A stretch of DNA of 64,000 bases from Undaria pinnatifida. Taxonomy: Eukaryota; Sar; Phaeophyceae; Laminariales; Alariaceae. The stretch covers positions 6,553,765 to 6,617,764 of the forward strand of contig JABAKD010000004.1 in NCBI GenBank assembly GCA_012845835.1, given 5' to 3'. Below are positions 4,949 to 26,872 of this stretch, piece by piece. The first letter of the stretch is position 1. Each line of letters begins with the position of its first letter. The translations under genes and the position numbers were made by a program. The notes beneath the pieces are model-generated. The model ran no database searches. It was given only the letters and a program-made list of their open reading frames with translations, and was not told where the DNA came from.

Positions 4949-4977
4949 ATGACCGCTGAAGGCCCAGACGCTTCGCC
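4949..4977 (+). CDS. Exon 1 (tentative start exon)
   Basis: The next exon has no ATG and is blocked upstream by in-frame stops, so a start exon ending two bases into a codon is needed. ATG at 4949 reads MTAEGPDASP and reaches a GTGCAT donor in exactly that phase. Another upstream exon could serve instead; this choice rests on phase, proximity and composition only. Confidence 0.4.
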
Positions 4978-7900
4978 GTGCATGTTTGTTTCGATGTCGT
5001 CGACGGTGTCGGTGTTGGTGTCGATGTTGGTGTCGGTGTCGGTGACTGACGGTGTCGGTGACTGACGGCGTCGGTGACCGATGGTGTCGGTGACTGACGG
5101 TGTCGGTGGCTGACGGTGTCGATGACTGTCGGTGTCGATGACTGTCGGTGTCGATGACTGTCGGTGACCGCTTCAGTGTTGGTGATGGTGTTGACGGTGA
5201 TAGTGACGGTTACCATGGCGGTGATCTTGTTGACGGCGACAAAGACAATGACGATGACGATGGCATAGTTGACGACGACTGCGACCCGGTGAATGTCGGT
5301 GAACGTGTCGGTGATGCTGATGCTGACGGTGTCGATGTTGATGACGATGGCGGTGGTATTGTTCACGGCGACGGTGATGGTGAGGGCGTTGGTAACCTAT
5401 TTCTTGTTGGTGACGTTGATTGCGACGGTGACCATAACAGTGATGTTGATGACGGTGACCATGAAAGTTACCGTGACGGCCTTAATGTTGACGGCGACAG
5501 TGACGGTGCCCATGCCGGTACTATTTTTGACGGCGAATATGATGGTGACGCTGAGGGTGTTGGCGGCGTTGGTGACAGTGTTAGTGATCCACTCCTACAG
5601 TAAATAATGAAGGAAATTATCTGGGAACCAATACACCTCGCATGTCGTTGGCGCTATATTACAGTAGACACTTGTGCGGAGACCTTGCGAAGGATATAAA
5701 CCGACCTCAGATGGCCGTAGCGCTGCTCTTTTCTTCCTACCCCCCCCCCCACCTGGACCGCTTCGTCAGTAGCCGCCTTCACAGCACGGAACTCTCGAAG
5801 CAGCTCAAGCTGGTATTCCTTCCTACCGCCCCCTCTTATCTTCGCAACCCCCCTCCCCCCGTCTCGCTGATAATCGTACCCACAACATGGAACTCCTAAT
5901 AACAGCTCAAGTTGGTCTGCCATTTCAGCGTGAAGCAGAAGAGCGGGCGGAAGCGGAAACCTCGAGAAGGGGAGGACCCACCGCTCGATTCTCCCTCGCC
6001 CAGAGCTAAATCTTCCGCGGCTAAGCCCAGCGGCGGTAAGAGTGCAGCAGCTTTAGCGGCTGCTTCTGCGGCAGCATCGGCTGCGGCTGCGGCAGCAGCG
6101 GCAGCGGCTGCAGCGGCGGCGGGGGGAGGGTCGTCGTCGGCATCACCGTCGTCTGCGGCAACGACGTGGGCGAACGGGGAGCCGGAGCCTTCTGGAAATG
6201 GGAGGTGCGCGGTGTCGGCGGCGGTTGGGTTTGGCTTTTGCGTCACCCTGCCCTGTTACGAACATGTGTACTTGGTGTTTGGTATCATATCGCGCAATAT
6301 CCGTGTTCAGCCCCCTCCCCTCCTCTCCTCGCTTCTAACCCCCCCCCAGCTCCCTCAATTCAACCCCCCCACCCCCAACTACCAAACGCCTGCCACCACC
6401 ACTCCCTCGCCGTCGCCGTCGCCCTCAGCGTCCACCACCGCCGCCACTACAACCGCCACCACCTCGCCATATAGCCCCCCCCTCCCCTTCCCCCCGTTTG
6501 GTAGACTAGAGACTAGCGATCGCTTTCCTAGGAGATAGATGGTGGCCACAGACGGCCAAACAGGAAGGAGGTAGGATAAACTAACAGTCTAGTGTAATAT
6601 ACGGCAAAAGCGTAATGACCGTCCAAGTGTTGAAGGCGTCTCTATGAGGAGCAGGAACGGTGCTCCGTCTCTAACGGGACGCGTGGTCAATGGTCAAATG
6701 TCTAATGCAAGCAACAAATGAGCACGCCCCCCCCCCCCCCCCCTTCCCCCCCCCTACCCCGCCTCCTCCCCCCCAAATCCCCCCCCCTAACCTCCCTCTC
6801 TACCCCCCTTCCCCGTTCGTGTTCGCAGAAGTGACGATGGCTCCGCTTCTGACGGGAACACGATTCAGGTTTCGTGCGAGTCTTGTCTTAGACGTAGGCG
6901 ACGATGCAACGGGGAGCGGCCGTGTAGTGGCTGCGCGAGGGCGGGAGAGGGAGAGCATTGCGTCTACCCGGCAAAGCGAAAGTCCACGAGCTCGAAGGTT
7001 CGTGGGGGTTGGGGTTGGGGTTGAGGTTGGGGTTGGGCTGTGAGCGTGGGGGTGGGGATGGGGTTGGGGTTGGGGGTGAGGGAGGGGGTTGCGTTGCCCG
7101 GTCAAGCGAATTTTTACGAGCTTAAAAGGGTCGATGGGATGGGGGCGAGGCTCGGCGTGGGGGTTGGGGATGGGGGTAGAGGTGGGGCTAGGAGTATGAG
7201 TTGGGGTGGAGGTATGGATGGGCAGGGGGGTGGGAGAGGGGGTCGCGTCTACCCGGCCAACGAAAGTCAACGATCTCGAAGGTGTGTGGAGGCGGGGGTG
7301 GGAGTGGGGGTGTGGTGGTGGTGGTGGTGGTGGTGGTGTTAATGGTGAGGGTTCTTGCTTGCCTTTCCTTGCTTGGGCTTGGTTCTGTGCTTGCTCGCGT
7401 TGTTGCTTGTTTGCTTTGTTTGCTTGGGTTCTTCTTTCGCCTTCTTTGCCTTCCTTCTTTTTTTTGCCTTGGTCTTATTGCGTCCGTCCTTCCGTTGCGC
7501 TATTTCTTTGCCCCCTTCCCTTTCTTTCTTGCTTGCTCTGCTCCACGTGTTGGTTATGTTGCTGTATTGTTTGTTCGCTTCATTTAGTTCATTTATTTGC
7601 TTTCTTGAATCCTTCCATGCTTGCGTTTCTTGCTACAGCCGGCGATGCCGCTACCGAAGCACAGACGCGAGGACGCGGGCACTCGCTCCCTCCTCAATAT
7701 ATCCTCAACCCACCCAGGCCCAGCAGCCGACCGCCTGCCACTCCAAAAGCGCCACGGCCTAGCATTGAAAACCGCGAGGAACCCCCCTCCCCCACCATCA
7801 ACGCCTTACAACGCCGTCAAGCTCCAACCGCGCGCCCACGGCGACGCTCGCAACCCCCATCGCGGGTCGGGCCGCCACGAATCACCCGGTGCGGGGGACG

Positions 7901-13900: not shown

Positions 13901-16900
13901 CAGGCTTTCACACGCTTTCCCGCGCCTGTGGCGCTCAACAGCAGGGCATTGCAGCCCGAAAGTCGTGGCAGCGTGACAGCTAAGTACTCCCCTGCCGGCA
14001 GCCTTTCTCCGTCGTCGCAGCAAGACGGGGATGTTTGCTGTCATCTCGGGGCTGAAGCGCGGGCTTTACCGCCACTGGCGTTGTTGTGTGGGACCGGAAG
14101 AGAAAGCTGGGTTTCAGACCATAACCTCTCACGTGTTAGCCCACCCGCTATTGTCCCACGGTTATTGCCGGTGTAACCCCCCTTTTGTTGCGATCACACC
14201 CTCTTGTTATCACGCCATCTGCAATCTGTCGGAGGTCTGTCGCTCCTTAGTCATGATTAATACCGTTAGCACACACCCTCGTTATCACCCCCCCCCCCCC
14301 CCCCCCCCCCCCTCCGTTACCACACACCCTGGCTGCGGAACTCCCGTGCATATTGCTCATGACCCGGGATGCGTTAAATGGCACCCACCCACCCACCCAG
14401 CCCCCCCCCACGACAGCACACCCGATGGTGATAGTTTTAAAGGTCACGTGGAATCACCAGGGTGTGCTTTTTTCCGTGTTCTTACGGTATGCGCTTTCCA
14501 TGACAACAAAGATGAATGGTTTAATGGTGTTTTTTTTTCATGGCGGGGGGGGTGGGGGGGGGGGGGGGCAACTACGGCCATTTTCAGGCCGTCTGAATTT
14601 GGTTTATGGAAGTTCGCCTATCTGCTGTGTTTCGCGGACGTTTTTCAATTTTGTTGGTTTCAAGCCAAAAAAATCTCCCCACTATTTTATGAATATGAAA
14701 GACTAAGGCACCGGCCGGCGGTTCGAGGAGTTGGTTGTACCTCTTTTTGGTCCGCTGCTGCTATTAACAGTGTGCTCTACGTAGCGTGGCGCTCGGACCC
14801 TGGATGCAACGACACGCACTTAGGAGATCGGTCCACGGATCGTTCCACACACAGATCATGGTCTAGAGCGTGTAGATCGTATATTTGCCGTTATGATATA
14901 CTGCGCAAGAATGAATGATACAGGTATCACCCGGCGATCACGTGCGCAAGAGCCATGCCAGGCAGATACCACACACTGAAAAACTGATACTTCGAAGTAT
15001 AGATATTGTGAAATTGTTCTAACAACATCAGCTGTGAGTTCGGCAAATTTAGAGTCTATACTCACCGTTGCAAGCTGCGTAGTACACCAGTCGTCCGTTT
15101 TCGGTAAGTATTCATGACTCAAAACCAAATATTGAATGTCGTTGTATTATCATACTTATCATGCATAACCAAGTGTTAGATTGGTACACATCGATCGTCT
15201 GTACATAGATTTGTGCAGATCAAGCAAGTTGGGATCTGAACCCGAAATATCTTCCAGGTAGACCGTGAAATGTGCATCTGGTCTGTGCGATGTTTTTTGT
15301 TGTGTGTGTCCCGCTTTGTCTCTAATGTGTGAATGCGCCTGGGATGTCATCGTGTTACTTCCTTCCCCCCCCCCTCCCACCTCTTTCCTCTCTTTCACCC
15401 TCCCCTCTGCCCCCCCCCGCCCCCCCCCCCCTCCCCTCATCTCGCTCGCCCGTTTTTTTCCCCTGATCGAAACCCACAACAGGCTTGAGACCGAAAGCGA
15501 GGCGAGACGCACGCTGATCGAGCTCGCCCTGCAGGACGCGAGTCCCGCCGACCTCCCCTACCCCCACCCTCCCGATACCGCCTCCGCCGGCGATGGTAGG
15601 GGTTCCCCTAAAGCCCTCCCTAGTCACCTTAACGGTTCGAGTGGTGGCGGCTCGTGTTCTGACGGTGGTGGAGGCGGTAGTGGTGGTGATGGAGGGACGG
15701 GGGCGGGGGCGGGGGTGGAGGGTGTTGAGGGTCGGGGCGGGGGTAGGGGGGGGCGAGGCGGTGGCCGTGGAGGGAGTTCGAGCGGGGTGAGGCGAGGCGT
15801 TACGCCGGAGAAGGGGGCTAGCCTTTGGGCTGGTGTGGGCATTGGGGCTATGCTTCAGGTGGGTGATGGGAGGGGAGAAGAGGGGGGGGAGGGAGGGAGG
15901 GAGATAGAGAGGGAGGGAGGGAGGGAAGGGGGGGGGGGAGAGAGGGAGAGAGGGAGGGAGGTGCGCTTTTTTTTTTCGCGGGGGAGGCTATGTTTGGGGG
16001 CGGTGGTTTGGTATTGTTATGGGTGATGGTGTTGGTGTTGACGTATGTGTCGTTGGTGTTGGTACTAGCTTTGATGTTGGTATCGATGCTGTAGTAGCGT
16101 AGCATGGAGTTCGGGCGGGGGGAGTGGTGGATTGTCGGTATTTCAAACCCCCAAATAATGGCTTATGGCTTTTCAGCTTCGATCGACGTCATTTACTCCA
16201 TAATGTAGACGATGTAACGCCTCCCTTCCCCCCACCCTAACTCCATGCTATGCTTCCTCAGGGGGCCTCGCCCGAGGACGGAGAGATGTACGCCAATATG
16301 GCCAAGGAGCAGTTGGAAGGAGCCCTGGAGGGGGACGGCGATGGGGACGGAGTTCCAGGAGGCGTTTTGTCTGGGGCCAGGGCCGGCCCTTGCGGCAACC
16401 GCCAACAACAAAGGGTGCGGGCGGACCTGATGCTGACGGTGCTGTACGATATGCTCGGACGGTATGACGAGTCCGACGAGTACCTCAACGCGGCTTTCCA
16501 TGTGAGTTTCGTTTTTTTTTCCCATGGTTTTCACGGGTCATGATTCGACCCGCGGGTTGGGTCCAGGATTTGCAGTAACTCCCGGGTCGAGTAGGGTCGG
16601 GTCGGGTCGGGTCGAGTCGGGTCGGGTCTGGTCGGGTCGGGTCGGGTCTGGTCTGGAGGTGTTGGAAATGTTTCAATATCTCTCGCGTCGAGTCGGGTCG
16701 AGTCGGGTCGGGTCGAGTCGGGTCGGGTCGAGTCGGGTCGGGTCGAGTCGGGTCGGGTCGGGTCTGAAGGCGTTGTAAATATTACAATATCTCACGGATC
16801 GAGTCGGGTCGGGTCGGGTCGGGTCGGGTCGGGTCGGGTCGGGTCGGGTCGGGTCGGGTCGGGCCGGGTTGGGTCTGGAGGTGTTGAAAACCTTACACTA

Positions 16901-19900
16901 TCTCACGGGTCAAGACGGGTCGGGTCGGATCTGGAGGTGTTGGAAATACTTCAATACTCGCGGGTCGAGACGGGTCGGGTCGGGTCGGGCCAGGTCGTGT
17001 TCGCAATCTCACGGCTTGGATCGCCTCGTGTCGGGTCAGGATGTTGTCAAGTTCACGGGTCGGATGGGGTCACCCTGAACCGACCCGACGCGGGAGAAGT
17101 CATACGACCGGTGAAGAACTTTTTTTTTTCCACTGCGGGTTGGGGACCGTCTTTCGGATGATCGGGGGGGGGGGGGCGTTAAGGTTTTGATTTTTAGGGT
17201 CTAAGATTACGTAGAAGGAGATGTTGATCTTGACGGTGTTGTGCGACATGCTTTAGCGACACGACGAATCCGATGAGTACTTCAACTCGGCGTTCCGTGT
17301 GAGTCGCCCCCCCCCCGAGGGTGTCGAGGTTAGGGGATTGTGGCGCGTGGGAGCAAGGTTGGGGTTTTAGGCTAGGTAGTGGCAGTGAGGGGACGGGGAG
17401 GGGGGGGGGGGGCAGAAGGGGCGGCTGGGACAGGGTTTAGGGTTAGGAAGGGGCAGTAACATGGCTTTTTGCGCGGATCTCCTCCCCCCCCCACCCGGTC
17501 CTACAGGCTGCGGCTATGCATGACGCAATGATGACGACCCGCCCCAACCCCGTCCGAACCCCCTCGCCCCAACCACCCCCCTCTTCCCCGCTCCTCATGC
17601 CCTCACCCCCTCCCCTCGTTTTCCCTTACCCCTGTTTCTTGCACCACACCCCTTCTTTTGGTTCCCCTGCTGACGTGACTCCTCCTTCCCTCCTCCTGCC
17701 CCCCCCCCCCCCGCCTCTTGCCCCCCCCCCCCCTCTCCCCCCGTTCACTCTTACCCCCGTCCACTGCACCATCACCATCACTACCCTCCTCTACAAGCAG
17801 GGGGTCGGTGAAGCCTCGACTCACCTTCGAGACGTCCTCGACCTCCTTACGGCCGCCAAGCAGGAGCGTGATTGGCTAGGGCCCGTGGGCGGGCATGGAG
17901 CTTCCGGATGTGGGACGGGCCACCACCACCACCACCACCACCACGCCCACCACCCTCACCACCACCACCACCACCACCACCATCATCATCACAGTCACCA
18001 TGGCCACCACTCGGGTTCTTCGGCGGGCGGTGGTGGTGGAGTTGGTGTCGGTTCGAAGGCGGCGGGGGGTGGGGTTGGGGGGGGAAGGGTGGGGTCAGGC
18101 GTGGGCTTGGGAGAGCCGCGACAGCAGACCCCCATGCTTATCACGGAGGGGAATGCGCTGTCGCTGCTTAATAAACTGAGCTGGGACACGCTCAGGTACG
18201 ATTTGCCTACCTTACCCTATTCTCCCCTGCCCTGCCCTACCCTACCCTACCCCACCCAACCCAACCCAACCCAACCCAATGTATAAGAAACCAGAGTGGT
18301 CAGGACCTAGTGTACCGTACAGCAATCTGTGCTTTGACCCCAACTCGGCCGTGTGCTGCATTGTTTTGATCATCTCCCCTACAATCCCCCCTCACCCCCG
18401 TACGAGACCCTTCGATTTATCCTAGTTGCTTCCCGCGCTCTTGCTCCACCGGTTGAGGTTTATTGACCCCCCCCCCCCGCCACCAACCTACCCCTCTACC
18501 CCCCCCCCCCCCCACACGCACACATTTACTATCTGATGTCGCATTGATCTCCTTAACATCTTTAGAGCCCCAAAACCCCTCCCTGTACTAATTCCAAGTA
18601 AGTTTGCCCCCCAAAAGGGTTTCCAGTTGAACGGCGTTAACCGCAACCGTGAGCGGTTCGCTAGCCTCTACCCCCCCTAAACACACACCGTCCACAAAAC
18701 GCCTCCCCTCCCCCTCCTTCTCTGTCTCTTCTAAGATGTCTCCTTAATTTCAACGTGACCGGTGACCATTACCGCGATATCTCAGATGGTTCCTAGCTTC
18801 CAACCTTCGGCGATGCATGAAAGTGAGCACCCCCCCCTCCCCCCCCCCCTCCGCCCTCCCCCCCCCCCTCCCTCCTCCGCGCTCCCCCTCACCCCCCCCC
18901 CCCCTCCACTACGCCGTTTATTTGACTCTTCAATGCCTCCCAACGTTGATCATGACCGTGACCATTTCCACGTTGTAATGCCCCAGGCGGTTCACCAGTC
19001 TCCCCTTCGCGGCAGCGAGTAGGGGGGGGAAGGGGGGGTCGAACTGCCACGCGCTGGCGGAGTGGCGGAGTGCGGAAGGCTGGTACGGGACGCTGACCAA
19101 GGTTCGTTTTTTCGTGTTCCTTTTTTTGTGTGCAGCTTGTAGGGTTAGGTTTGAGTTTCGGGCTTGGGCTTGGGCTTGGGCTTGGGCTTGGGCTTGGGCG
19201 TGGGCGTGGACTTGGGCTTGGGCTTGGGCTTGGGCTTGGGCTTGGGCTTGGGCGTGGGCGTGAGCTTGGGTCCATTGCTGACGCTAGCCAAGGGTGAATA
19301 CAAATACAGCATCGGTCACCTGACGTAACTTGGGCGGCTGGTTGGGCGATAGCGGGTGTAGGGTGTTGAGCCACGGTTGCAGACAAAACTCGTTCTTGCT
19401 CCGCGCCCATGCTGGACTATACGGCTGGCGAGACCGCTTTTGTAGTGTTGGTGTCGTTTATGCACCTGAGCCCCGAAGGGGTTTAAGGGTAAGCATGAAA
19501 AACAGCACAAGACAGTTGCAAGCAAGCGGGTATCGAAGTGGCGCCCGCACGTCGTCGCGTAGGCCGGCACAGAGATGGGAGTGAGCCTGTGGGGCTGAGC
19601 GGAGGGGGAGGCAGACGGGGGGGGGGGGGGGGATGTCATTGGGAGCTGTCGAATCGAAGAAAAATGAGCGTGAGCCTTGTGCTGAGCTACCCATCTTCCC
19701 CTCCCCTCCACCAAATTGAAAGAACAAGCCGAACCCCAAAGTCAATACTCAAAACTCGAAAACGTCCCAATAGTCGTTTTTTTTCCTTTTTTTTTCCCCT
19801 TTGAAGTTCGGAAAGGGTAACTAAGGGTGGTGGTGGTTTCTCCTTTTTTCGCATGATACCCTCTATTTCCGTCTCTGTGTGTTTGTGGATTCGATGACGA

Positions 19901-22900
19901 CGCGCTACTCGTATAAATATTTTTCCTCGCCCTCCCCCTTCCCTCTCCCACACCCACCGTTTGGACTGTACAGGCGCACTCCCACCTCTGTGCCGACCTG
20001 AACGACGACGTGAGGGCGCTGCCCCGATGCCCGCTGGCTGTCGGCCTCCTGAAGAGCAAGCTCAGCTGGCTGCACTCGTGCCTCGGCAGGACTACAGCAG
20101 CGGCGGATAAGTCTCAAGTGGTGAGCGATACACGGGGTATGGAGAGAAAAACGAGGCACATGCACAAGTGGGGGTGGGGTGTATGGAGGGGAGGGGGGGT
20201 GAGGGGAAGGGAGGGGGGCCGGGGGTCGTGGTGGAGGCGTGAGAAGCGGCGTCAGATATGTCTCCCTGGTTGTGGTTTCGGAGAGATGGGAGGTACAGGG
20301 GGGGTATCAGGGAGATATGTGTGGGGGGGGGGGAGGGGGGCAGCCCCCCCCCCCCCCGCCCGGCGTGTGCCAAAACACGCTTTTTCTCCGTACGTCCGTG
20401 CGTACGCACGTTTAGGTTATTATTTTAGTTTTTGTTTTTGTTTCCCCGTTGCGTTCCCCCCCGTCCTTCCCTCCTTCTCACCCTTCCTACCCCCCCCCCC
20501 CCCCCCCCCGCCCCTTCCCTCATCCCCTCGTCAGATGCTGGCCCTCTTAGAGCCGTTTCCGGGCGCCGGTCGGTGGTCACTGTGGAGGCACCCGCTTCAT
20601 TTGGCCGCATGCCATCTGGCCATCGCGGGCCGGCCAGGGGCGTACGAGAAGCTGCGGCGAACGTTTAACGCTTTCCGTTTGCCGGGCATGGTGCGTTTTT
20701 GTATTTTCATGTTTTTTTAATATACTTTTTCCGGGCGGGCGTAATGCGTGCGTTTTTTGCAAACAAGCCCGTGAACACTACGAGCTGGTCCGGCTGTAAG
20801 GCTGATTTTCGCTTAAAAGGCGTTTTCTCAACCGTTTGGACATACTACTATTAGGACTACAAATTTGGCAGCTGCGCTTCCAAGTCTACAGCACATTCGC
20901 AGACGCCAAAAACAATGGAATGGGAGTTGATTTTGCGGCATGAGAAAGTTCATGCCCAGCAAATCAACTCACATATGGAGGTATGTCGATACTAAAGTCT
21001 ATTCGGCAGTCAGAAATTTTCAGCACTGCTGTGGATGATGCTGATTCTCGGTGTGAACATTCCGTGAGGCATTACGAAACAATCGATGTCCTCACCATCG
21101 CCTAATTGGTGGTCTGTCACAAAGAGGTATGCCGTGTTTGCGATCGGCAATACAAATAGGTACGTCGGTGAGCGAGACATAATCCGGTTTTCGCAGCTCA
21201 ATTTGACGAATTTTGGGCTGAATTTTTGACACGTGGTTCTTCGAAGCGCGTTTTGTCGAGGTCTTCAAGCCGGCTTCAGAAACAGAAGTATAATTCGGTC
21301 GATTTGTACCTTGGCGTTTCACTGAAATGTTCATAATTATCAAGGCTTTGGTTGGGGGTGGGAGCAACGGGATATGATGTCCGTGGGTACGATTTGGTTC
21401 GGAATGGAAAGAGGTCATTTGCTTGGGTACGGTTTGGATGGGTACGGGAATTGCGATTTATCACGCGACCAGTCCCATTTCCCATTCCCGTGGAAATACC
21501 GCGGGAAAAGTACCGCGGGAATATTCCCGAGAGGAGCCTTGATAATTTCAACTCCTCAACTTCTTTGTTTTTCTGGAGCCGGCTTGACCCGTTACGTTAT
21601 ACGCATATACCGGGCCCCATGCAGAATTTCAGATCGAAATTCGTAAAACTGTGCTGCGAAAAAGCATTTTAACTGTCACGGCTGGCTGTAAGCCAGACCA
21701 GCTCGGACGCGTTCCGTTTTTGCCGGGTAAGGTGTGTGTGTGTTTCAATGTAGTCAAGCTTTTAGAGGGAAACGGCTGTAGTTATGATAGGAACTTGCGC
21801 AGCAGGATGTTTGTACCTGTCGCGAAGTTGTTTGCGTTTGGTGATTTGGTGACGTTAGGAAAATCGTGTCCATATATGTAGGACATAGTATCAAATATTT
21901 CAAATACGTGAGCTGTGAGTTGGAAGAATTGGGTGGTCGACACTCAGCTAGCCGTAAATGCGATGGGCCGGGCGTGTTCCATGGGAAGTATTCTTGGTTG
22001 TGTAAAAGTAGCACGAAGACCTAAAACGGGCGACAAGGGCATCACGCAGTTTGCTAAGATGAGTATCGACTCTTACCTTGATCGAACTCACAGCTGACGT
22101 ATTTGAATCAGTTGAAAAAAAAAAAAAGTTGTAAGTCAGTCAGCTGTTGAGGTCGAAGCTTAGAGTCGATACTCGATACTCAGCTGTTTCAAGCTGCGTG
22201 ATGTAAGCGCGTAGGAAACGGGAAGCGGAAGCGAAAGCACGGATTGACATTCCTATCGGTCTTGCTTATTGAGTGCAGCCTTTGATGTTTGTGAGGGTCT
22301 CAGGGTGGCCACCGGCAGTTTTATCAGTCTTCTGTTGACTTGCTGTCAAATCCTTCTGACGCCCTAACTTCCCTCCCCTCTCATCCCCCCCCCCCCCCGC
22401 CCCTCCCCCCCTCCCATCTCCGCAGGTGGAACACCCTCCATTCGAGTCCTTCCACAGGCTGACACAGCTCTGCCCCTCCTGTTCTCCCACGCTAACCCTG
22501 CTCGTCAAAGCGTACAAGCCCCACCTCGAGCCGTTGCTCCTATCACCCCCTGGGGCCACCAGCGCGCCGTCCCCGGCCAATGCCAACACGCCGCCCGATG
22601 CAGCGGGAGAATCTGCTTCTGCTGCTCCTGCTTCCGGGTCTGGTGGTGGTGCTGACGCTGCTGCTGCCGCTGCTGCTGCGGTATGGACTGGAAATGGAGA
22701 GCACGAGATAGGATCATGGCAGCAACAGCAACAGCAGCATCACGAAGGGGGTGGGGGCGCAAGGCCGGGACAGCAGGGGGAAGGGAGGGAAGCAGAACAG
22801 TCATCGTCGTCTCCTCCTGCGGATTACCCCTCCCCGTTGGAAGTTTACCCCGCCCCTTGCCCTAACGGAGGCGGTGGGGGGGGCGGGGGGGCGGGTATCA

Positions 22901-25900
22901 AGGCGCCCGGAGGGGAGGGGGGAGTGGTAGGACCGCCCGAGCGAGGGTCTGGCGTCGGTGTATCGGCGGAGGTGGTGGAGGGGGGGGTGGTAGGGGAGGC
23001 GGGAGAGGAGTGCGGGGGCAGGGGACACGTCGCTGCGGATTCGCACGGTGAGTGGTTTGGGGGGGGGGGATAAGGCGGGTGGCGGTAGTGGAGGCAGTGG
23101 TTGCAGGGAAGGGAAGGGGTTTTGGTGTTGGTGTTACTGGATGAATGAGTTATGTCTCGTGCGGTGTTCGCCGTTGCTGCGCTGTGTGGATGCCCGCCCG
23201 CATGATGAGGTGTGTTCATGCGTCTTGTGCATCACCCACCACCCGCCCCATGACGTGTGCTGTTGACAATATGCTGTTGGCAGATGAGCTGACGCCTTTT
23301 TTGGTTCGGCTGTTTTGACGGCTGTTGGCGTGTGTCGCGCTGTTCGCAGGTGTTTCGGATGGTAGATTGGAAGCATCCGTCATAAATAACAGTTGTTGGA
23401 GTGGAGAAAAATCCTGAAGAAATTTCCCGCGAAACGTCCAAAACTTTACGTACGAGTATTCATGTAGCAGTTTCGTCGTGTTCGTTGTTGACGCTCACGC
23501 TGGCCATTGTGCCATTGTGGGACGACGCATGCTACGATAGAGGTATACCGTTTTTTGGCGAAATGGTTTCTGAATGACGGGGTTCCTTAACCCAAAACCG
23601 TCGGAAAAAAAATAAATAATAGGCCATTTTGTTTGCATGGTTCTCGTTGTGTACCCACGAGGCCATGGGATTTTTCATCCGGTATGTATCAGTTTTGTTT
23701 TTCTCCAAATCAGTTTTTTTTGGGAGGATCATGTCTTAAGCTCCCGAATTTAGGAACCTCAGGAAAAAAAGTGGTGCACCTCTTATCGTAACACGCGTCG
23801 GGGAGCAACGAAACTAATATCAATATAATAATATATACCGGTAGCTAGCTTGCAAAGCTGAGCATTGACCTGAAATTCGTCCAACTCACGATGAAAATGT
23901 TTTTGTATAGTGTAAAACATCTGACGTATTTAGAGTAGTTTTTTTTATTCCATATCTATTTTGCTGTTTTTGTTTTGTTGTCAGGCGAGGTGATCAATGG
24001 CGCGGTGGAATCTCACATCGGCATGTTTGGCCCGGGCACAAGGGTCATGGATCGACAGCTCAGCTTCCTCGACTACCAGGTAAAATTTGTGTCGGTGGGG
24101 GGTGGGGATGTTGGGCTTCTGGCCCTTTGGTGGGTTTGTACATGGGATGGGATGCGGCGGGGTAGAGGGGGGGGTAGGGTGATGATGGTGATGGAGGTTG
24201 GTCATGGATTTGCAGCTTGGCTTCCTTGACTACCAGGTAAAATTAGTGTCGGTGGGGGTGGGGATGTTGGGGTTCTGGTCCTTTGGTGGGTTTGTACATG
24301 GGATGGGATGGGGCAGGGTAGAGGGGGGGGGGTAGGGTGATGTTGATGGTGAAGGAGGTTGGTCATGGATTTGCAGCTCGGCTTCCTTGACTACCAGGGA
24401 ATTAATGAAATTACCGGGGTGGGGATGTTGGGCTTCTGGTCCTTTGGTGGGTTTCTACATGGGATGGGATGGGGCGGGGTAGAGGGGGGGGTAGGGTGAT
24501 GTTGATGGTGATGGTGATGGAGGTTGGTCATAGATTTGCAGCTCGGCTTCCTTGATTACCAGGGAATTAATGGGGAGTGTTGATATTTGGGTGGCGTTTG
24601 GCATGGGATGGAGTAGCCAGGTAAGAACTGACCAGGGTGAGGGGTGTTGATTTTTTGGTGGAGTTGAACGTGGGATGGGCTGTACTGCCGGGTGGAATAA
24701 CCGGGGAGGGGGGTGTTGAGCTGTTGGTGGGTCGATTAGTGGGTTTTGATATGTGTTGGGTGGAATTCTACAGGGGATTGGGTGCGGTAGGATGGGGTGG
24801 GTTTTGACATGAAATGTGTTGGGTTCGACATGGGATGGGATAGGTTGGGTTGGGTTCCGACGTGGGATGGGGTGGGATATAATGAGGGGGGTATGTGGTG
24901 GGGTGGGGTGACGTGATGAGGAGATGGGGTAGAGGGAATGGGATGAGATGGGGGTGGGATGGGATGGGATGGGATGGGATGGGATGGGATGGGATGGGAT
25001 GGGATGGGATGGGGTGGGGTGGGGTGGGGTGGGGTGGGGTGGGGTGGGGTGGGGTGGGGTGGGGTGGGGTGGGGTGGGGTGGGGTGGGGTGGGGTGGGGT
25101 GAGGTGGGGTGGGGTGGGGTGAGGTGGGTTGGGGTGGGTTGGGGTGGGTTGGCGTGGGTTGGGGTGGGTGGGATGGGATAATATGGAGTAGGTTGGGGCG
25201 GGATGATATACATTGAGGTGATATGATATTTCATGGTTGTTTCAGAATGAGACGAGATGCGATGCATTGCGATCCTATGAGATAGGATAAGATTCATGAT
25301 GAGGGTAGATGCCATGGGAGATGACCAAATTAGATGAGACGATAAATGCTTTCAAGATCAGCTCCTCTGGAACATATAGAATTGAAAGGAAGGCTTAACG
25401 GACGCTTGTTTCTCTCCTTGGCAGGCCTTGATGGAGATGTTCGCGGCAGACCAAAAGATCAGCGCTTCCCTCGCCACCCCATTGGATCCCATCGACGACC
25501 TGCTCGCCGGTAAGCGAGAGATTCAGCTATGCCAAGCAATTGGTGTTCGTGGCGACGTAGTTGTTGGTGGAATGGCACGGGGTGATGTTTTGTTTGATTG
25601 GGGTTGGTGGTGGTGGTGGCGGTCTTGGTGTTCTGTTTTTTTCGCTGTTTACGTTGCTCTCGGCGTTTCCGTGGCTGTCTTTGCTATGTTGTTGCCGTTG
25701 CTGTGGTGGTGGTGTGTGTGTTTTTCTTTCCTGGGCACTACTTGTTTTATTTATTTTTCGTTGTTGATGTTGCTGTTCTACACGGTTTGAAAACCCTGCC
25801 GTAGCTACGTGGTGCGCAAGGTTGAACACCCTCATTAGCGCAACAAAATACAGCTCTCGTGAACCCCCCTCCCCCCCCGCCGTACACGCCTCTGCCTTTA

Positions 25901-26872
25901 CCTTTTCTGTCGTTCATTGTTTTCGCCTTTTATTACCTTCGCCTTTCTCATGATTGTGCGCCTGCAGAATGGAATAGTAGCGTGGAAGACCCTGGAGAAG
26001 GAAGGCCGATGATGCTTGGAGGGCATTCGGGATCCGAAGAGGTTGGTCAGCGTTGGCTAAGTGATTGTACACCAGGAGCCGTCGATCGCGTGTCATGCGT
26101 GTGTGTGGACCCAATACGACACACCTTAGGCGCCCCTTTATAGCCTGTTGTTGTTGCGTCATTTCTCAACCCGCCCGCCTTTCTCAATCCACGCGCCCGG
26201 CCGGGTTGCGTATTTATTCCATCAACCAATCCAAACCGCGGTCCGTGCTTACCCCCCCCCGCCTTCTAAAAAACGCCGTGTCTCGAGTCAACTCCCAACG
26301 TCCAGGATGGTGGCCGGTTTCCCTCCCCCTCCCTGAGGGGGCCGAATTGTGTAGTGTTATCTATCAACCAATCCTGCTCGTACTAACCCACCCCTCCCGG
26401 TCCAAATCGCGACCCCTGCTAGCCCCCTCCCCCCGCTCCGCTAAATAACGTGGCATCCTATAGCGTTCCTTCTCCAAACCCCCAGCACGACCACTGTCAA
26501 CTGTCACGTTATTTCTCCATCATGCTCAAATCCCCCCCCCCCCCTCCGAAAAAATTGCCTCGTTTGAATCCAACTCCCAAACCCTTCCAGGACGGCGACC
26601 AATTCCGAGACGAGGAGGCGTGCAACCAAGAAATGGAGGACCCGCTTTTCGGGTACCCCAATCCGAACGCGAATTTCGGCCCCCAATTCACTCCCGATGA
26701 TGACCCTGCCCCAGCCGACTCTAGCGCGGACGCTGTCTTGCCCATGTCGACGTCCAATTCTTCGGCTGCTACTGCTGCTGCGGCCGCGGCGGCTGTGACA
26801 ATGCTCAGGCAGGACCAGCCCCCGTTCTCGCCTTCGGGCAACCATGGAAGCGTAACCGTCATGTGTCCCTAG
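4949..26872 (+). CDS. Fungal-type Zn(II)2Cys6 transcription factor, 16-exon model
   Basis: Proposed joins: 4949-4977, 5929-6204, 6829-6997, 7639-8322, 12300-12991, 15483-15858, 16262-16501, 17507-18195, 18786-18822, 19974-20120, 20535-20690, 22426-23047, 23985-24079, 25425-25509, 25968-26041, 26591-26872. These give 4653 nt, 1550 residues plus TAG, and every intron is GT-AG with matching phase. Residues 118-146 are a binuclear zinc cluster, which in this family binds DNA as a nuclear regulator. Residues of about 605-1165 are helix-rich and resemble the middle homology region of such factors (aromatic FLDTYFAFFGRFA, then an ALWAGVGIGAML-like stretch and a leucine-rich repeat-like segment). Basic KSGRKRKPR near the N terminus is a likely nuclear signal. 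The rest is low complexity. Target genes cannot be inferred. The family call is strong; exon 1, the donor of exon 15 and a possible intron inside exon 8 are the weak points. Confidence 0.8.
4978..5928 (+). other. Intron 1 with GACGGT-type hexamer array
   Basis: From about 4990 to 5590 the intron is a degenerate array of GACGGT / GGTGTC hexamers. Long frames are open on both strands because the unit is a multiple of three; the Asp/Gly-rich reading at 5148-5603 is not taken as a gene. The 3' part (5640-5928) is pyrimidine-rich and ends in CCATTTCAG. Confidence 0.5.
5929..6204 (+). CDS. Exon 2: basic patch and poly-Ala
   Basis: Residues about 10-101. It opens with VKQKSGRKRKPR, a basic run suited to nuclear import, followed by a Ser/Pro segment and an Ala run of more than 20 residues, then Gly/Ser. 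The acceptor is TTTCAG and the donor GAG|GTGCGC leaves two bases, matching exon 3. The poly-Ala is coded by mixed GCN codons, so it is a protein-level run more than a pure microsatellite. Confidence 0.75.
6512..6725 (+). mobile_element. LINE 3'-end fragment in intron 2
   Basis: About 210 bp match the 3' end of the LINE at 10803-11015, including the segments translating as LGDRWWPQTAKQEG and ending at CAAGCAACAAATGAG next to a C-run. It is a 5'-truncated insertion, typical of LINEs. Both copies end at the same point beside a long C tract. Confidence 0.75.
6726..6828 (+). other. Poly-C-rich 3' splice region of intron 2
   Basis: A tract of C runs with few T's precedes the TTCGCAG acceptor of the zinc-cluster exon. 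It takes the place of the usual T-rich polypyrimidine tract; several other introns of this gene do the same. Confidence 0.6.
6829..6997 (+). CDS. Exon 3: Zn(II)2Cys6 binuclear cluster
   Basis: Residues about 102-158. Six cysteines at about 118, 121, 128, 134, 137 and 146 (bases 6875-6961) have spacing C-x2-C-x6-C-x5-C-x2-C-x8-C, within the range of the fungal zinc-cluster family. The first loop is a run of arginines (LRRRRR) and the second contains Pro at the expected turn (NGERP). A basic linker, PAKRKSTSSK, follows. The exon lies between a CAG acceptor and a GTTCGT donor and contains no ATG. Confidence 0.92.
7082..7290 (+). repeat. Two decayed copies of the exon 3 end in intron 3
   Basis: Bases 7082-7138 and 7231-7290 each repeat the last 50 or so bases of exon 3 with its donor and the G-rich start of the intron (CTACCCGG, then AAGCGAA or AACGAAAGTC, then TCGAAGGT). 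They are spaced about 150 bp apart. The second ends in AAGGTGTGTGG, which resembles a donor at least as good as the one assumed for exon 3. Confidence 0.8.
7639..8322 (+). CDS. Exon 4: low-complexity Ser/Gly/His/Gln region
   Basis: Residues about 159-386, read in phase 0 from CTACAG to a GTTAGT donor. There is a basic start (MPLPKHRRED), then Pro, Gly, Ala and Ser runs, a SPTRSALP segment, then HHQQQQH and a NNHHHRHK end. It is probably disordered; no domain is recognised. The same frame stays open past the donor, so the exact end rests on the GT site and the phase of exon 5. Confidence 0.7.
8600..9567 (+). mobile_element. LINE, reverse transcriptase part (5' of the interruption)
   Basis: The frame at 8640-9040 reads QQGAAQGCTLSPNLFKVYIN and LMLADDFVG, the core motifs of a non-LTR reverse transcriptase (the usual YADD appears as LADD). 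Bases 9050-9540 continue with YLGVEISKD and KLKWQHKVNNMPEKRLPAI in shifted frames with stops, so the copy is dead. The N-terminal part is missing. Sequence up to about 9567 is LINE and the rest resumes at about 10390. I recall near-identical protein from Ectocarpus mobile elements. Confidence 0.85.
9575..10215 (+). repeat. Element E, copy 1, inside the LINE
   Basis: About 630 bp match 56080-56709 closely from CTCACATTAACTCTTG to ACGATCGCTGCTCTCATGAT. It splits the LINE, so it arrived later. The T-run before it and the A-run near its end (10167-10190) suggest retroposition, but no clear target duplication was found. A minus-strand reading (HCMPAGRHSDSTPD) is kept in both copies. Confidence 0.75.
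10390..11015 (+). mobile_element. LINE, C-terminal part (3' of the interruption)
   Basis: Reads GKFGGYETVVREIIEEKERL and a zinc-knuckle-like CPCGTTIESRSHIVGECE near 10670-10740, then a tail that the 6512-6725 copy shares, including NVGGVS. The frame breaks at a TAG near 10815 inside what other copies read through. It ends at a C-run at about 11015. Confidence 0.85.
11024..11640 (+). repeat. Degenerate tandem repeat in intron 4
   Basis: Units of about 70-110 bp share a GTGCGATAACTCCGATGGG-like core (11028, 11098, 11180, 11600 and others) followed by ATATCATCACAGCGGC. Copies are diverged and irregularly spaced. Confidence 0.5.
12300..12991 (+). CDS. Exon 5: Gln/His-rich start, start of helical region
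   Basis: Residues about 387-616. A Gln/His run (QHQQHQQQQHH) and Gly/Ser stretch are followed by an Ala/Glu-rich segment of roughly 60 residues likely to form a long helix or coiled coil (AARAVEARARLVEAKARSEA). It ends with FLDTYFAFFGRFA, which resembles the opening of the middle homology region of zinc-cluster factors. The GAG|GTGCGT donor leaves two bases, matching exon 6. Confidence 0.75.
12992..15482 (+). other. Intron 5 (2.5 kb)
   Basis: Holds CACACCCT-type short repeats (13040-13100 and 14190-14340), C-runs (14288-14313 and 15364-15432), a G-run near 14547 and a diverged copy of the P-family end motif near 15022-15080. I see no convincing coding exon; the frame at 13468-13848 has no family signature. 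Confidence 0.5.
15483..15858 (+). CDS. Exon 6: helical segment with Gly-rich insert
   Basis: Residues about 617-742. ETESEARRTLIELALQDASP looks like conserved helix, then a Gly-rich insert of about 60 residues, then SLWAGVGIGAMLQ at the end. In zinc-cluster factors a similar small-residue helix opens the middle homology region. The acceptor ACAACAG follows a C-rich tract; the donor is CAG|GTGGGT. Confidence 0.75.
15859..16261 (+). other. Intron 6, purine-rich start
   Basis: The first 110 bases are an AGGG/GAGAGGGA purine tract followed by GT-rich sequence. The 3' end is C/T-rich before CCTCAG. Confidence 0.5.
16262..16501 (+). CDS. Exon 7: middle homology-like core
   Basis: Residues about 743-822. 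GASPEDGEMYANMAKEQLEG followed after an acidic Gly-rich loop by RADLMLTVLYDMLGRYDESD parallels the family pattern in which small-residue helix, acidic turn, tyrosine-containing helix and leucine-rich helix follow each other. This is the best non-zinc evidence for the family. The donor CAT|GTGAGT is close to consensus. Confidence 0.85.
16565..17060 (+). repeat. (GGTCG)n pentanucleotide satellite in intron 7
   Basis: GGGTC/GAGTC pentamers run almost without break from 16585 to 16870 and more loosely to 17060, with three interspersed spacers of the type GGAGGTGTTGGAAAT..CAATATCTC. The spacers show higher-order units of about 110-130 bp. Confidence 0.9.
17216..17298 (+). pseudogene. Decayed duplicate of exon 7 end in intron 7
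   Basis: Bases 17221-17298 align with 16424-16501 and read MLILTVLCDML, a TAG stop, RHDESDEYFNSAFR, then a GTGAGT donor. Most differences are single bases. No acceptor-side copy is visible, so it is probably a dead partial exon duplication and not a usable alternative exon. Confidence 0.85.
17507..18195 (+). CDS. Exon 8: Pro-rich, conserved helix, poly-His
   Basis: Residues about 823-1051. AAAMHDAMM continues the middle region, then a Pro-rich stretch, then THLRDVLDLLTAAKQERDWL, a long His run (17930-18010) and a Gly-rich stretch, ending NALSLLNKLSWDTL. Bases 17552-17800 are pyrimidine-rich, begin GTCCGA and end AAGCAG, and are 249 nt long and in phase 0. They could be an intron, and the frame survives either way. 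The donor is CTCAG|GTACGA. Confidence 0.7.
18196..18785 (+). other. Intron 8
   Basis: Starts with CCCTA/CCCAACC runs, holds C-runs at 18470-18515 and a whole TTAA-flanked MITE at 18553-18640, and ends CGATATCTCAG. Confidence 0.5.
18553..18640 (+). mobile_element. TTAA-flanked MITE, copy 3, in intron 8
   Basis: 88 bp, TTAACATCTTTAGAGCCCC to CAGTTGAACGGCG then TTAA. The same length as copy 2 and in the same orientation. Confidence 0.75.
18786..18822 (+). CDS. Exon 9: 37-nt micro-exon
   Basis: Reads (R)WFLASNLRRCMK, residues about 1052-1064. Exon 8 ends with two bases and exon 10 must start in phase 0, so an exon of length 1 mod 3 is needed. This one lies between CTCAG and AAA|GTGAGC and meets it exactly. 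Other exons in 18.2-19.9 kb cannot be excluded. Confidence 0.65.
18823..19973 (+). other. Intron 9
   Basis: C-rich start (18829-18905), a (GGCTTG)n hexamer array at 19155-19270, a G-run at 19617-19632 and T-rich sequence at 19778-19800, ending TGTACAG. A G/C-rich stretch at 19040-19100 looks faintly exon-like but has no supported ends. Confidence 0.5.
19155..19270 (+). repeat. (GGCTTG)n hexamer array
   Basis: About 18 units of GGCTTG with a few GGCGTG variants, inside intron 9. Confidence 0.9.
19974..20120 (+). CDS. Exon 10
   Basis: Residues about 1065-1113: HLCADLNDDVRALPRC, then VGLLKSKLSWLHSCLG. Amphipathic helices, no low complexity. The donor GTG|GTGAGC is phase 0. Confidence 0.8.
20121..20534 (+). 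other. Intron 10: G-rich first half, C-rich second half
   Basis: 20170-20340 is dominated by G runs and 20342-20525 by C runs, so the transcript could fold back on itself and bring the splice sites together. It ends CCTCGTCAG. Confidence 0.55.
20535..20690 (+). CDS. Exon 11
   Basis: Residues about 1114-1165: LLEPFPGAGRWSLWRHPLHL, AACHLAIAGRPGAYEKLRRT, then FNAFRLPGM. Conserved-looking and Trp-containing. GTGCGT donor. Confidence 0.82.
20691..22425 (+). other. Intron 11 (1.7 kb)
   Basis: AT-richer than the exons. It holds GGTACGG/TACCGCGGGAA short repeats (21370-21530) and three diverged pieces of the P-family end motif (21908-21960, 22050-22100, 22150-22205). C-runs at 22387-22412 precede the CCGCAG acceptor. 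Confidence 0.5.
22426..23047 (+). CDS. Exon 12: conserved start, long disordered tail
   Basis: Residues about 1166-1372. PPFESFHRLTQLCPSCSPTL then TLLVKAYKPHLEPLLL looks ordered. After that come Ala, Gln (QQQQQQHH), Ser and Gly/Val runs. The donor CACG|GTGAGT leaves one base, completed by GC of exon 13 to Gly. Confidence 0.78.
23048..23984 (+). other. Intron 12
   Basis: G-rich start, then ordinary sequence with T-runs. I see no repeat family or exon. It ends GTTTTGTTGTCAG, one of the few T-rich acceptors of the gene. Confidence 0.5.
23985..24079 (+). CDS. Exon 13
   Basis: Residues about 1373-1404: EVINGAVESHIGMFGPGTRV, then MDRQLSFLDYQ. Ordered-looking. The donor CAG|GTAAAA is the most typical in the gene. 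Confidence 0.82.
24201..24650 (+). repeat. Tandem copies of the exon 13 end in intron 13
   Basis: Units of 157-165 bp starting at 24044 (the real exon end), 24201, 24362 and 24527. Each contains CTTCCTTGACTACCAG or a close variant followed by the intron start. The second unit keeps CAG|GTAAAA; the third and fourth have lost it (CAGGGAATTAATG). Confidence 0.9.
24880..25190 (+). repeat. (GGGAT)n/(GGGGT)n pentanucleotide array in intron 13
   Basis: Pure GGGAT from about 24955 to 25010 switches sharply to pure GGGGT until about 25125, then degenerates. The switch shows one base change spread through part of the array. Confidence 0.92.
25425..25509 (+). CDS. Exon 14
   Basis: Residues about 1405-1432: LMEMFAADQKISASLATPLD then PIDDLLAG. 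TTGGCAG acceptor and GCCG|GTAAGC donor, both good. One base is carried to exon 15. Confidence 0.82.
25510..25967 (+). other. Intron 14
   Basis: GT-rich, with a GGTGGTGGTGG run near 25605-25620, T-rich after 25740. Ends GCCTGCAG. No repeat family recognised. Confidence 0.5.
25968..26041 (+). CDS. Exon 15
   Basis: Residues about 1433-1457: (E)WNSSVEDPGEGRPMMLGGHS then GSEE. The donor GAG|GTTGGT is weak, but phase 0 fits exon 16. The frame stays open for another 100 bases, so a later donor is possible. Confidence 0.65.
26042..26590 (+). other. Intron 15, with tandem copies of the acceptor region
   Basis: Imperfect units of about 142 bp run from about 26160 to 26605. ATCAACCAATCC occurs at 26220 and 26362. 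CAACTCCCAACGTCCAGGAT (26288-26308) resembles the true acceptor and exon 16 start at 26574-26596. Confidence 0.6.
26591..26872 (+). CDS. Exon 16 (last), ends TAG
   Basis: Residues about 1458-1550. Acidic Asn/Pro-rich start (QEMEDPLFGYPNPNANFGPQ), a Ser/Ala run, then MLRQDQPPFSPSGNHGSVTV and stop. An acidic, Pro-rich tail suits an activation region, which is inference only. Confidence 0.8.
   Translation, partial: DGDQFRDEEACNQEMEDPLFGYPNPNANFGPQFTPDDDPAPADSSADAVLPMSTSNSSAATAAAAAAAVTMLRQDQPPFSPSGNHGSVTVMCP

What the first reader, a model, noticed from the sequence alone, without database searches (positions are those of the whole stretch)
4949..26872. A 22-kb fungal-type zinc-cluster regulator in an algal-looking genome
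Seen: a perfect Zn(II)2Cys6 pattern in an exon without ATG (6829-6997), and fifteen further exons whose phases all agree. Known: this DNA-binding fold is mostly fungal, with smaller sets in stramenopiles. Inference: the gene is intact and functional, with long disordered insertions between ordered blocks. Gene finders could easily split it.
Basis: partly seen in the sequence, partly recalled or inferred. Interest (0 to 1): 0.75.

Follow-up and report, generated by a model that had tools for sequence, protein, structure and literature searches.

The report
Kelp-type gene with fungal-style zinc cluster
This looks like a real, conserved brown-algal gene regulator of a kind best known from fungi, carrying a helical part that domain databases do not recognise; most of it is a new member of a family already reported in these algae.

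Summary
The core observation holds. Exon 6829-6997 encodes C-x2-C-x6-C-x5-C-x2-C-x8-C and scores 28.6 bits against Pfam Zn_clus (cut-off 21) in the spliced protein. Fourteen further exons (5929-26872) join in one frame; 9 of 14 junctions recur in relatives' models. A Laminaria digitata model has the same joins around an intact cluster, 44/56 identical. The genome (511 Mb) has at least 14 Zn_clus places, a family already reported in brown algae. The ordered blocks show no Pfam Fungal_trans match. They resemble, in order, an unnamed helical domain beside at least five other Zn_clus places (profile score 36.9 versus at most 22.8 in 100 shuffles; other tests weaker). Best reading: a sequence-specific regulator with a divergent, possibly MHR-like helical effector domain. 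Against easy functional claims: the one Ectocarpus model that reaches this region lacks the whole zinc cluster while keeping both flanks; that model has other errors, so loss, alternative splicing and bad prediction stay open.

The parts
5929..6204 (+). exon 2: basic VKQKSGRKRKPREGE stretch (NLS-like, by eye) then Ala/Ser-rich; may start further upstream (LKLVCHFS is conserved before it)
   Evidence: 28/28 identical to L. digitata P0006 over the first 28 residues; joins 6829 as in P0006
6829..6997 (+). exon 3: Zn(II)2Cys6 cluster, VSCESCLRRRRRCNGERPCSGCARAGEGEHCVYPAKRK
   Evidence: Pfam PF00172 35.6 bits, cut-off 21; 44/56 identical in P0006
7639..8322 (+). exon 4: low-complexity linker
   Evidence: join from 6997 as in P0006
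12300..12991 (+). exon 5: linker, A/E-rich probable helix, start of helical domain (RENAFLDTYFAFFGRF)
   Evidence: join to 15483 exactly as in P0004; join from 8322 not matched
15483..15858 (+). exon 6: LETESEARRTLIELAL, Gly-rich insert, GVTPEKGASLWAGVGIGAMLQ
   Evidence: blocks conserved in P0001 and P0004
16262..16501 (+). exon 7: helical block RADLMLTVLYDMLGRYDESDEYLNAAFH
   Evidence: 48/60 identical to P0001 and P0002 over residues 777-838
17507..17551 (+). doubtful 45-base exon (in frame, weak donor)
   Evidence: absent from P0001 and P0002
17801..18195 (+). exon 8: helical block, His/Gly insert, PMLITEGNALSLLNKLSWDTL
   Evidence: join from 16501 as in P0002, join to 18987 as in P0003
18987..19101 (+). 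exon 9 of helical domain
   Evidence: joins as in P0003
19974..20120 (+). exon 10 of helical domain
   Evidence: joins as in P0003
20535..20690 (+). exon 11 of helical domain, RHPLHLAACHLAIAGRPGAYEKLRRTF
   Evidence: joins as in P0003; 191/209 identical to P0003 over residues 916-1124
22426..23047 (+). exon 12: end of helical domain then low-complexity linker
   Evidence: join from 20690 as in P0003
23985..24079 (+). exon 13: GMFGPGTRVMDRQLSFLDYQ
   Evidence: join to 25425 as in P0002
25425..25509 (+). exon 14: ALMEMFAADQKISASLATPLDPIDDLL
   Evidence: join from 24079 as in P0002
25968..26041 (+). exon 15
   Evidence: open frame and AG/GT borders only
26591..26872 (+). exon 16: acidic C-terminus and stop
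   Evidence: open frame and AG acceptor only

Best explanation
An intact nuclear gene of a brown alga (probably a kelp) encoding a member of the stramenopile Zn(II)2Cys6 ('Fungal TRF') transcription factor family. The zinc cluster with its five-arginine segment would bind a short CGG-type site; the basic stretches would carry the protein to the nucleus; the helical domain between about residues 571 and 1124 would be the regulatory and dimerising part, doing the job that the middle homology region does in fungal members, though it is not recognisable as Fungal_trans; the low-complexity stretches are flexible linkers under little constraint. Shown: the motif, the open frame, conservation in relatives, no second copy found in the genome. 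Likely, not proven: a shared helical domain in sister Zn_clus genes. Inferred: DNA binding, site, nuclear targeting, regulatory role, MHR-like fold, the kelp identity.
For: Zn_clus over cut-off in the window and in the L. digitata relative (31.1 bits); same exon joins around it. Constraint is stronger on blocks than on linkers: 191/209, 186/209 and 184/209 identical in residues 916-1124 against P0003, P0002 and P0001, but 97/297 in linker 149-500 against P0001; the nearer P0006 keeps 79/117 of that linker. Seventeen of 21 genome matches (E up to 0.001) to an insert-free 618-aa version lie in this gene; the other four cover only query residues 21-114, the zinc end. Profile comparison of relatives with sister Zn_clus genes: score 36.85, E 0.00024, 139 collinear columns; best of 100 column shuffles 22.75, reversed 14.54; a later block aligns at 74 against a maximum of 48 in 2000 shuffles.
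Against: No expression data. No start codon found. The one Ectocarpus model that reaches the cluster lacks it. hhalign probability is only 43.5%, on shallow alignments that I assembled by hand with inserts left out. In a six-frame search of fetched loci the best sister-gene hits of the window-side profile (0.029 and 0.065) stand beside an unrelated stretch at 0.057. The AlphaFold2 model is poor (mean pLDDT 40.9), so no fold was established. Profile searches of solved structures found no zinc-cluster regulator's helical part.
Confidence: 0.8

Rival explanations
1. The zinc cluster is dispensable: in Ectocarpus it has been deleted or is spliced out, so the conserved business end is the helical domain, acting as a co-regulator without its own DNA-binding domain.
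For: P0001 reads SESDGGHGDRGVFSGKRKSSSSK where the window and L. digitata carry the whole cluster; both flanks are kept. The block 916-1124 is nearly as conserved in Ectocarpus (184/209, 186/209) as in Scytosiphon (191/209).
Against: P0001 is a gene prediction with other apparent errors: it reads FVRWVFLFLRTLTELAL where P0004 has FARLETESEARRTL, and has an extra VEVTPLTLRIYVG after GAMLQ. P0006 keeps all six cysteines. No Ectocarpus DNA could be read here.
Confidence: 0.3
2. A decaying gene: the zinc exon and others are relics.
For: Degenerate copies of exon ends lie in the introns; the 4-kb intron holds reverse-transcriptase-like pieces (by eye).
Against: The 15 exons are open and in one frame with GT-AG borders; blocks are conserved.
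Confidence: 0.05
3. The exons belong to two adjacent genes, a zinc-cluster gene and a separate helical-domain gene.
For: Junction 8322^12300 is not matched by a relative with confidence; no transcript was available.
Against: P0001 runs from VKQKSG to the helical domain in one model; L026/L048 carries a zinc cluster and the sister helical domain in one 705-aa open frame.
Confidence: 0.07

Closest known systems
Zn(II)2Cys6 / Zn_clus / 'Fungal TRF' proteins of algae (PMC4827209; Ectocarpus Esi0071_0075 and Esi0071_0081 in PMC4108028; Esi0008_0230 and Esi0348_0008 in PMC3879662; passages seen)
   Same: Same DNA-binding motif and family label; Ectocarpus is in the same lineage
   Different: The passages seen give only the DNA-binding domain or the family name; which of them, if any, is this gene's counterpart was not tested
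Fungal Zn2Cys6 proteins Cep3, Cyp1/Hap1, Put3, Gal4 (PDB)
   Same: Weak sequence matches of the cluster, E 0.0072 (7k7g_M) to 0.77 (1d66_A); cluster near the N-terminus followed by a linker and a long helical part (recalled for the fungal proteins)
   Different: No Fungal_trans match; arginines fill the segment between cysteines 2 and 3; very long low-complexity inserts; 15 exons found
Sister Zn_clus genes of the same genome (L034, L036/L037, L038, L039, L048)
   Same: Zn cluster plus a helical domain with ESRFLSCFLEHF / SMAIGG blocks, collinear with the window's FLDTYFAFFGRF / GVGIGAMLQG
   Different: The window gene is the divergent one; L036, L038, L039 and L026/L048 have a GRPR stretch after the cluster (AT-hook-like, recalled), the window gene does not

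Membership tests
Zn(II)2Cys6 (Zn_clus) regulators | C-x2-C-x6-C-x5-16-C-x2-C-x6-8-C (as given in PMC4827209) | tested here: met
   2-6-5-2-8
Zn(II)2Cys6 (Zn_clus) regulators | Pfam PF00172 over its curated cut-off | tested here: met
   28.6 and 35.6 bits against 21; L. digitata 31.1
Zn(II)2Cys6 (Zn_clus) regulators | All six cysteines conserved in orthologs | tested here: inconclusive
   1 of 2 relatives' models that reach the region: kept in P0006, absent in P0001
Zn(II)2Cys6 (Zn_clus) regulators | Binds two zinc ions and DNA | not testable with these tools
   needs protein
Fungal_trans / MHR-containing zinc-cluster factors | PF04082 match downstream of the cluster | tested here: not met
   not listed for the full protein, for two insert-free cores or for four sister cores at E up to 10, though HMMER's filters drop most matches above about 0.1; whole-genome search, exon by exon, 3 matches, 0 over cut-off, none in this gene; a domain split over exons could be missed there
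Fungal_trans / MHR-containing zinc-cluster factors | MHR all-helical fold | tested here: inconclusive
   model of P0002 all helical but mean pLDDT 40.9; no fold search run

The most novel reading that the evidence does not exclude
Brown algae possess their own subclass of zinc-cluster regulators built on a helical effector domain that Pfam does not recognise, and in Ectocarpus this member has lost, or can splice out, its DNA-binding cluster while keeping that domain nearly unchanged, turning a DNA-binding regulator into a partner protein.
Probability: 0.25. Interest if true: 0.6.

Novelty: new member of a known kind. Interest (0 to 1): 0.4.

Why it matters
Transcription control in brown algae evolved separately from that of plants and animals, and few of its regulators are characterised (general knowledge). 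A conserved zinc-cluster gene, with no second copy found, that gene finders break up is a concrete candidate, and the shared unnamed helical domain would let the family be found by profile where Fungal_trans fails. If the Ectocarpus loss is real, it offers a natural test of what the domain does without DNA binding.

Tried and rejected
Exon 1 at 4949: not accepted, no support from relatives. Exon 17507-17551: left doubtful. An exon near 14925 (YHPAITCARAMP): rejected, no GT donor before its stop by eye, and P0004 joins 12991 directly to 15483. Helical-repeat (TPR/PPR) reading of the helical part: TPR_19 at E 2.5 and 5.6, far under its cut-off; tetratricopeptide chains at E 0.58 and 0.98 with the window-side profile; a PPR design at whole-sequence E 0.0037 but with no single stretch passing, with the sister profile. 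Not enough to name it, not excluded as a fold. Tandem-duplicate reading of the upstream Zn_clus exon (C48:6536327): no helical-domain match around it beyond chance level (best DAFLRTFLSFFGHF, E 1.6). No structure search was run because the model is poor. Species: a published Undaria pinnatifida assembly has 511,280,173 bases of scaffolds (PMC7058681, passages) against 511,146,479 here; suggestive, not tested. Literature searches. I saw titles and abstract openings only, of capped lists (20 of 151, 1 of 1, 11 of 11, 20 of 50, 20 of 331, 2 of 2, 4 of 4, 8 of 9, 3 of 3), plus passages of PMC4108028, PMC4827209, PMC3879662 and PMC7058681. None of what I saw named this gene or a helical domain of brown-algal zinc-cluster proteins; papers beyond the lists and subscription papers were not seen. 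The protein searches scored only the candidates sharing most words (7976, 7994; 14), so relatives may have been missed.

Full report
What is there. The window lies in a 511,146,479-base genome of 68 contigs, at C48:6553765-6617764. Exon 6829-6997 encodes six cysteines spaced 2-6-5-2-8. In the spliced protein Zn_clus scores 28.6 bits, and 35.6 for the exon alone, against a cut-off of 21. The motif occurs once in six frames of the window and in none of 60 Markov simulations. The closest solved clusters are weak matches: 12 chains with E from 0.0072 to 0.77, Cep3 (CBF3 subunit B), Cyp1/Hap1, Put3, Pho7 and Gal4 among them.

Gene model. Fourteen more exons, from 5929 to the stop at 26872, have GT and AG borders and agree in phase, giving 1468 aa without an exon 1. 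Nine of 14 junctions are reproduced without a gap in a relative's model: P0006 (Laminaria digitata) for 6204^6829 and 6997^7639, P0004 (source 'lgn', no organism given) for 12991^15483, P0002 (Ectocarpus sp. 8 AP-2014) for 16501^17801 and 24079^25425, P0003 (Scytosiphon promiscuus) for the four from 18195 to 22426. Five junctions remain without such support. A first exon near 4949 has none, and the conserved LKLVCHFS before VKQKSG suggests that the exon, or a constrained splice region, extends upstream of 5929.

Conservation. By local alignment of each block, identity is 28/28 in the first basic stretch and 44/56 in the zinc exon (P0006), 55/58 in block 571-632 (P0004), 48/60 in 777-838 (P0001 and P0002), and 191/209, 186/209 and 184/209 in 916-1124 (P0003, P0002, P0001). 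Linkers are looser: 97/297 in 149-500 against P0001, 79/117 there against the nearer P0006, 42/114 in the C-terminal linker against P0001. So the ordered blocks are more constrained than the inserts. No nucleotide sequences of the relatives were available for a dN/dS test.

The Ectocarpus discrepancy. P0001 (Ectocarpus sp. CCAP 1310/34, 1241 aa) aligns before and after the cluster but lacks it entirely. The same model looks wrong at two other places: FVRWVFLFLRTLTELAL against FARLETESEARRTL in P0004, and an extra VEVTPLTLRIYVG. It is the only Ectocarpus sequence found that reaches the region; P0002 starts later. I cannot tell a real loss from alternative splicing or a bad prediction.

Family. 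Zn_clus has 14 matches in the genome, all 14 over the cut-off, one with an internal TGA; this is a lower bound. An insert-free 618-aa query gives 21 matches at E up to 0.001: 17 in this gene, 4 elsewhere that cover only query residues 21-114, the zinc end, so no second copy was found. Fungal_trans gives 3 matches at E up to 1, none over cut-off and none in this gene; that search reads exon by exon and could miss a split domain. Of the 13 other Zn_clus places I read 12, up to 10-20 kb beside each. A shared helical domain lies at five (L034, L036/L037, L038 first exon only, L039, L048), a doubtful hit at a sixth (L042, E 0.095), none at six (L024/L025, L041, L043, L044, L045, L046); C21:5627318 was not read. 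The likeness among the five was first seen with the L026/L048 domain as query, E 1.9e-4 to 0.005 for the best pieces; their strong scores are by construction, since that profile was built from them. None of four assembled sister domains has a Pfam match listed at E up to 10.

Is the window's helical part the same domain? Profile-profile comparison gives E 0.00024, probability 43.5%, score 36.85 over 139 collinear columns. Column shuffles reach at most 22.75 in 100 tries and the reversed profile 14.54; a later block scores 74 against at most 48 in 2000 shuffles. Both alignments are shallow and were assembled by hand with inserts left out. In a plain profile search of fetched loci the sister hits are weak (0.029, 0.065) and an unrelated stretch scores 0.057. 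Taken together I think homology likely, about 0.8. Whether the domain is a divergent middle homology region is a guess from the order and spacing of its helices, compared with recalled fungal examples. AlphaFold2 on P0002 with three sequences gave an all-helical model of mean pLDDT 40.9, too poor to search with. Profile searches of solved structures gave no regulator of this kind; the only hit of the sister profile is a PPR design at E 0.0037 with no stretch passing on its own.

Mechanism. Zinc cluster binds DNA (inferred from the family), basic stretches target the nucleus (inferred), helical domain regulates or dimerises (inferred), linkers are flexible (from composition and divergence). Targets are unknown. 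In Ectocarpus two Zn_clus genes rise under copper stress (PMC4108028); I did not show that either is this gene's counterpart.

Known or new. The family label in algae, including Ectocarpus, is in print (PMC4827209, PMC4108028, PMC3879662; passages). In the capped listings I saw nothing on the assembled gene, the shared unnamed helical domain or the Ectocarpus discrepancy. I rate it a new member of a known kind.

Noticed in passing
6939-6997 and 7228-7281; 16428-16499 and 17225-17296; 24043-24079 and 24200-24236, 24361-24397, 24526-24562: Three exon ends recur, decayed, in the following intron (76-86% identical), some copies with the donor site; the copy at 17225 has a TAG in the exon's frame. 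This looks like intron growth by duplication across the 5' splice site.
   Followed up: partly
19521-19586 (-) against 19974-20039: The first 66 bases of the exon at 19974 occur inverted in the intron before it, 80% identical.
   Followed up: no
L024:2828-2902 (C48:6536327): Another Zn_clus exon (CDFCSRRKRKCDGQQPCQNCSK) lies 24 kb upstream of the zinc exon on the same strand; the sixth cysteine would come from a later exon, perhaps GEHLFC near L024:3342 (by eye).
   Followed up: partly
8650-9570: Reverse-transcriptase-like fragments (for example LMLADDFVGIS) in the 4-kb intron, broken by stops; identified by eye, no family search run.
   Followed up: no
C61:13939503, 13983709, 14029324: Three Zn_clus places in 90 kb; the zinc-exon stretches shown for the last two encode the same protein.
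   Followed up: no
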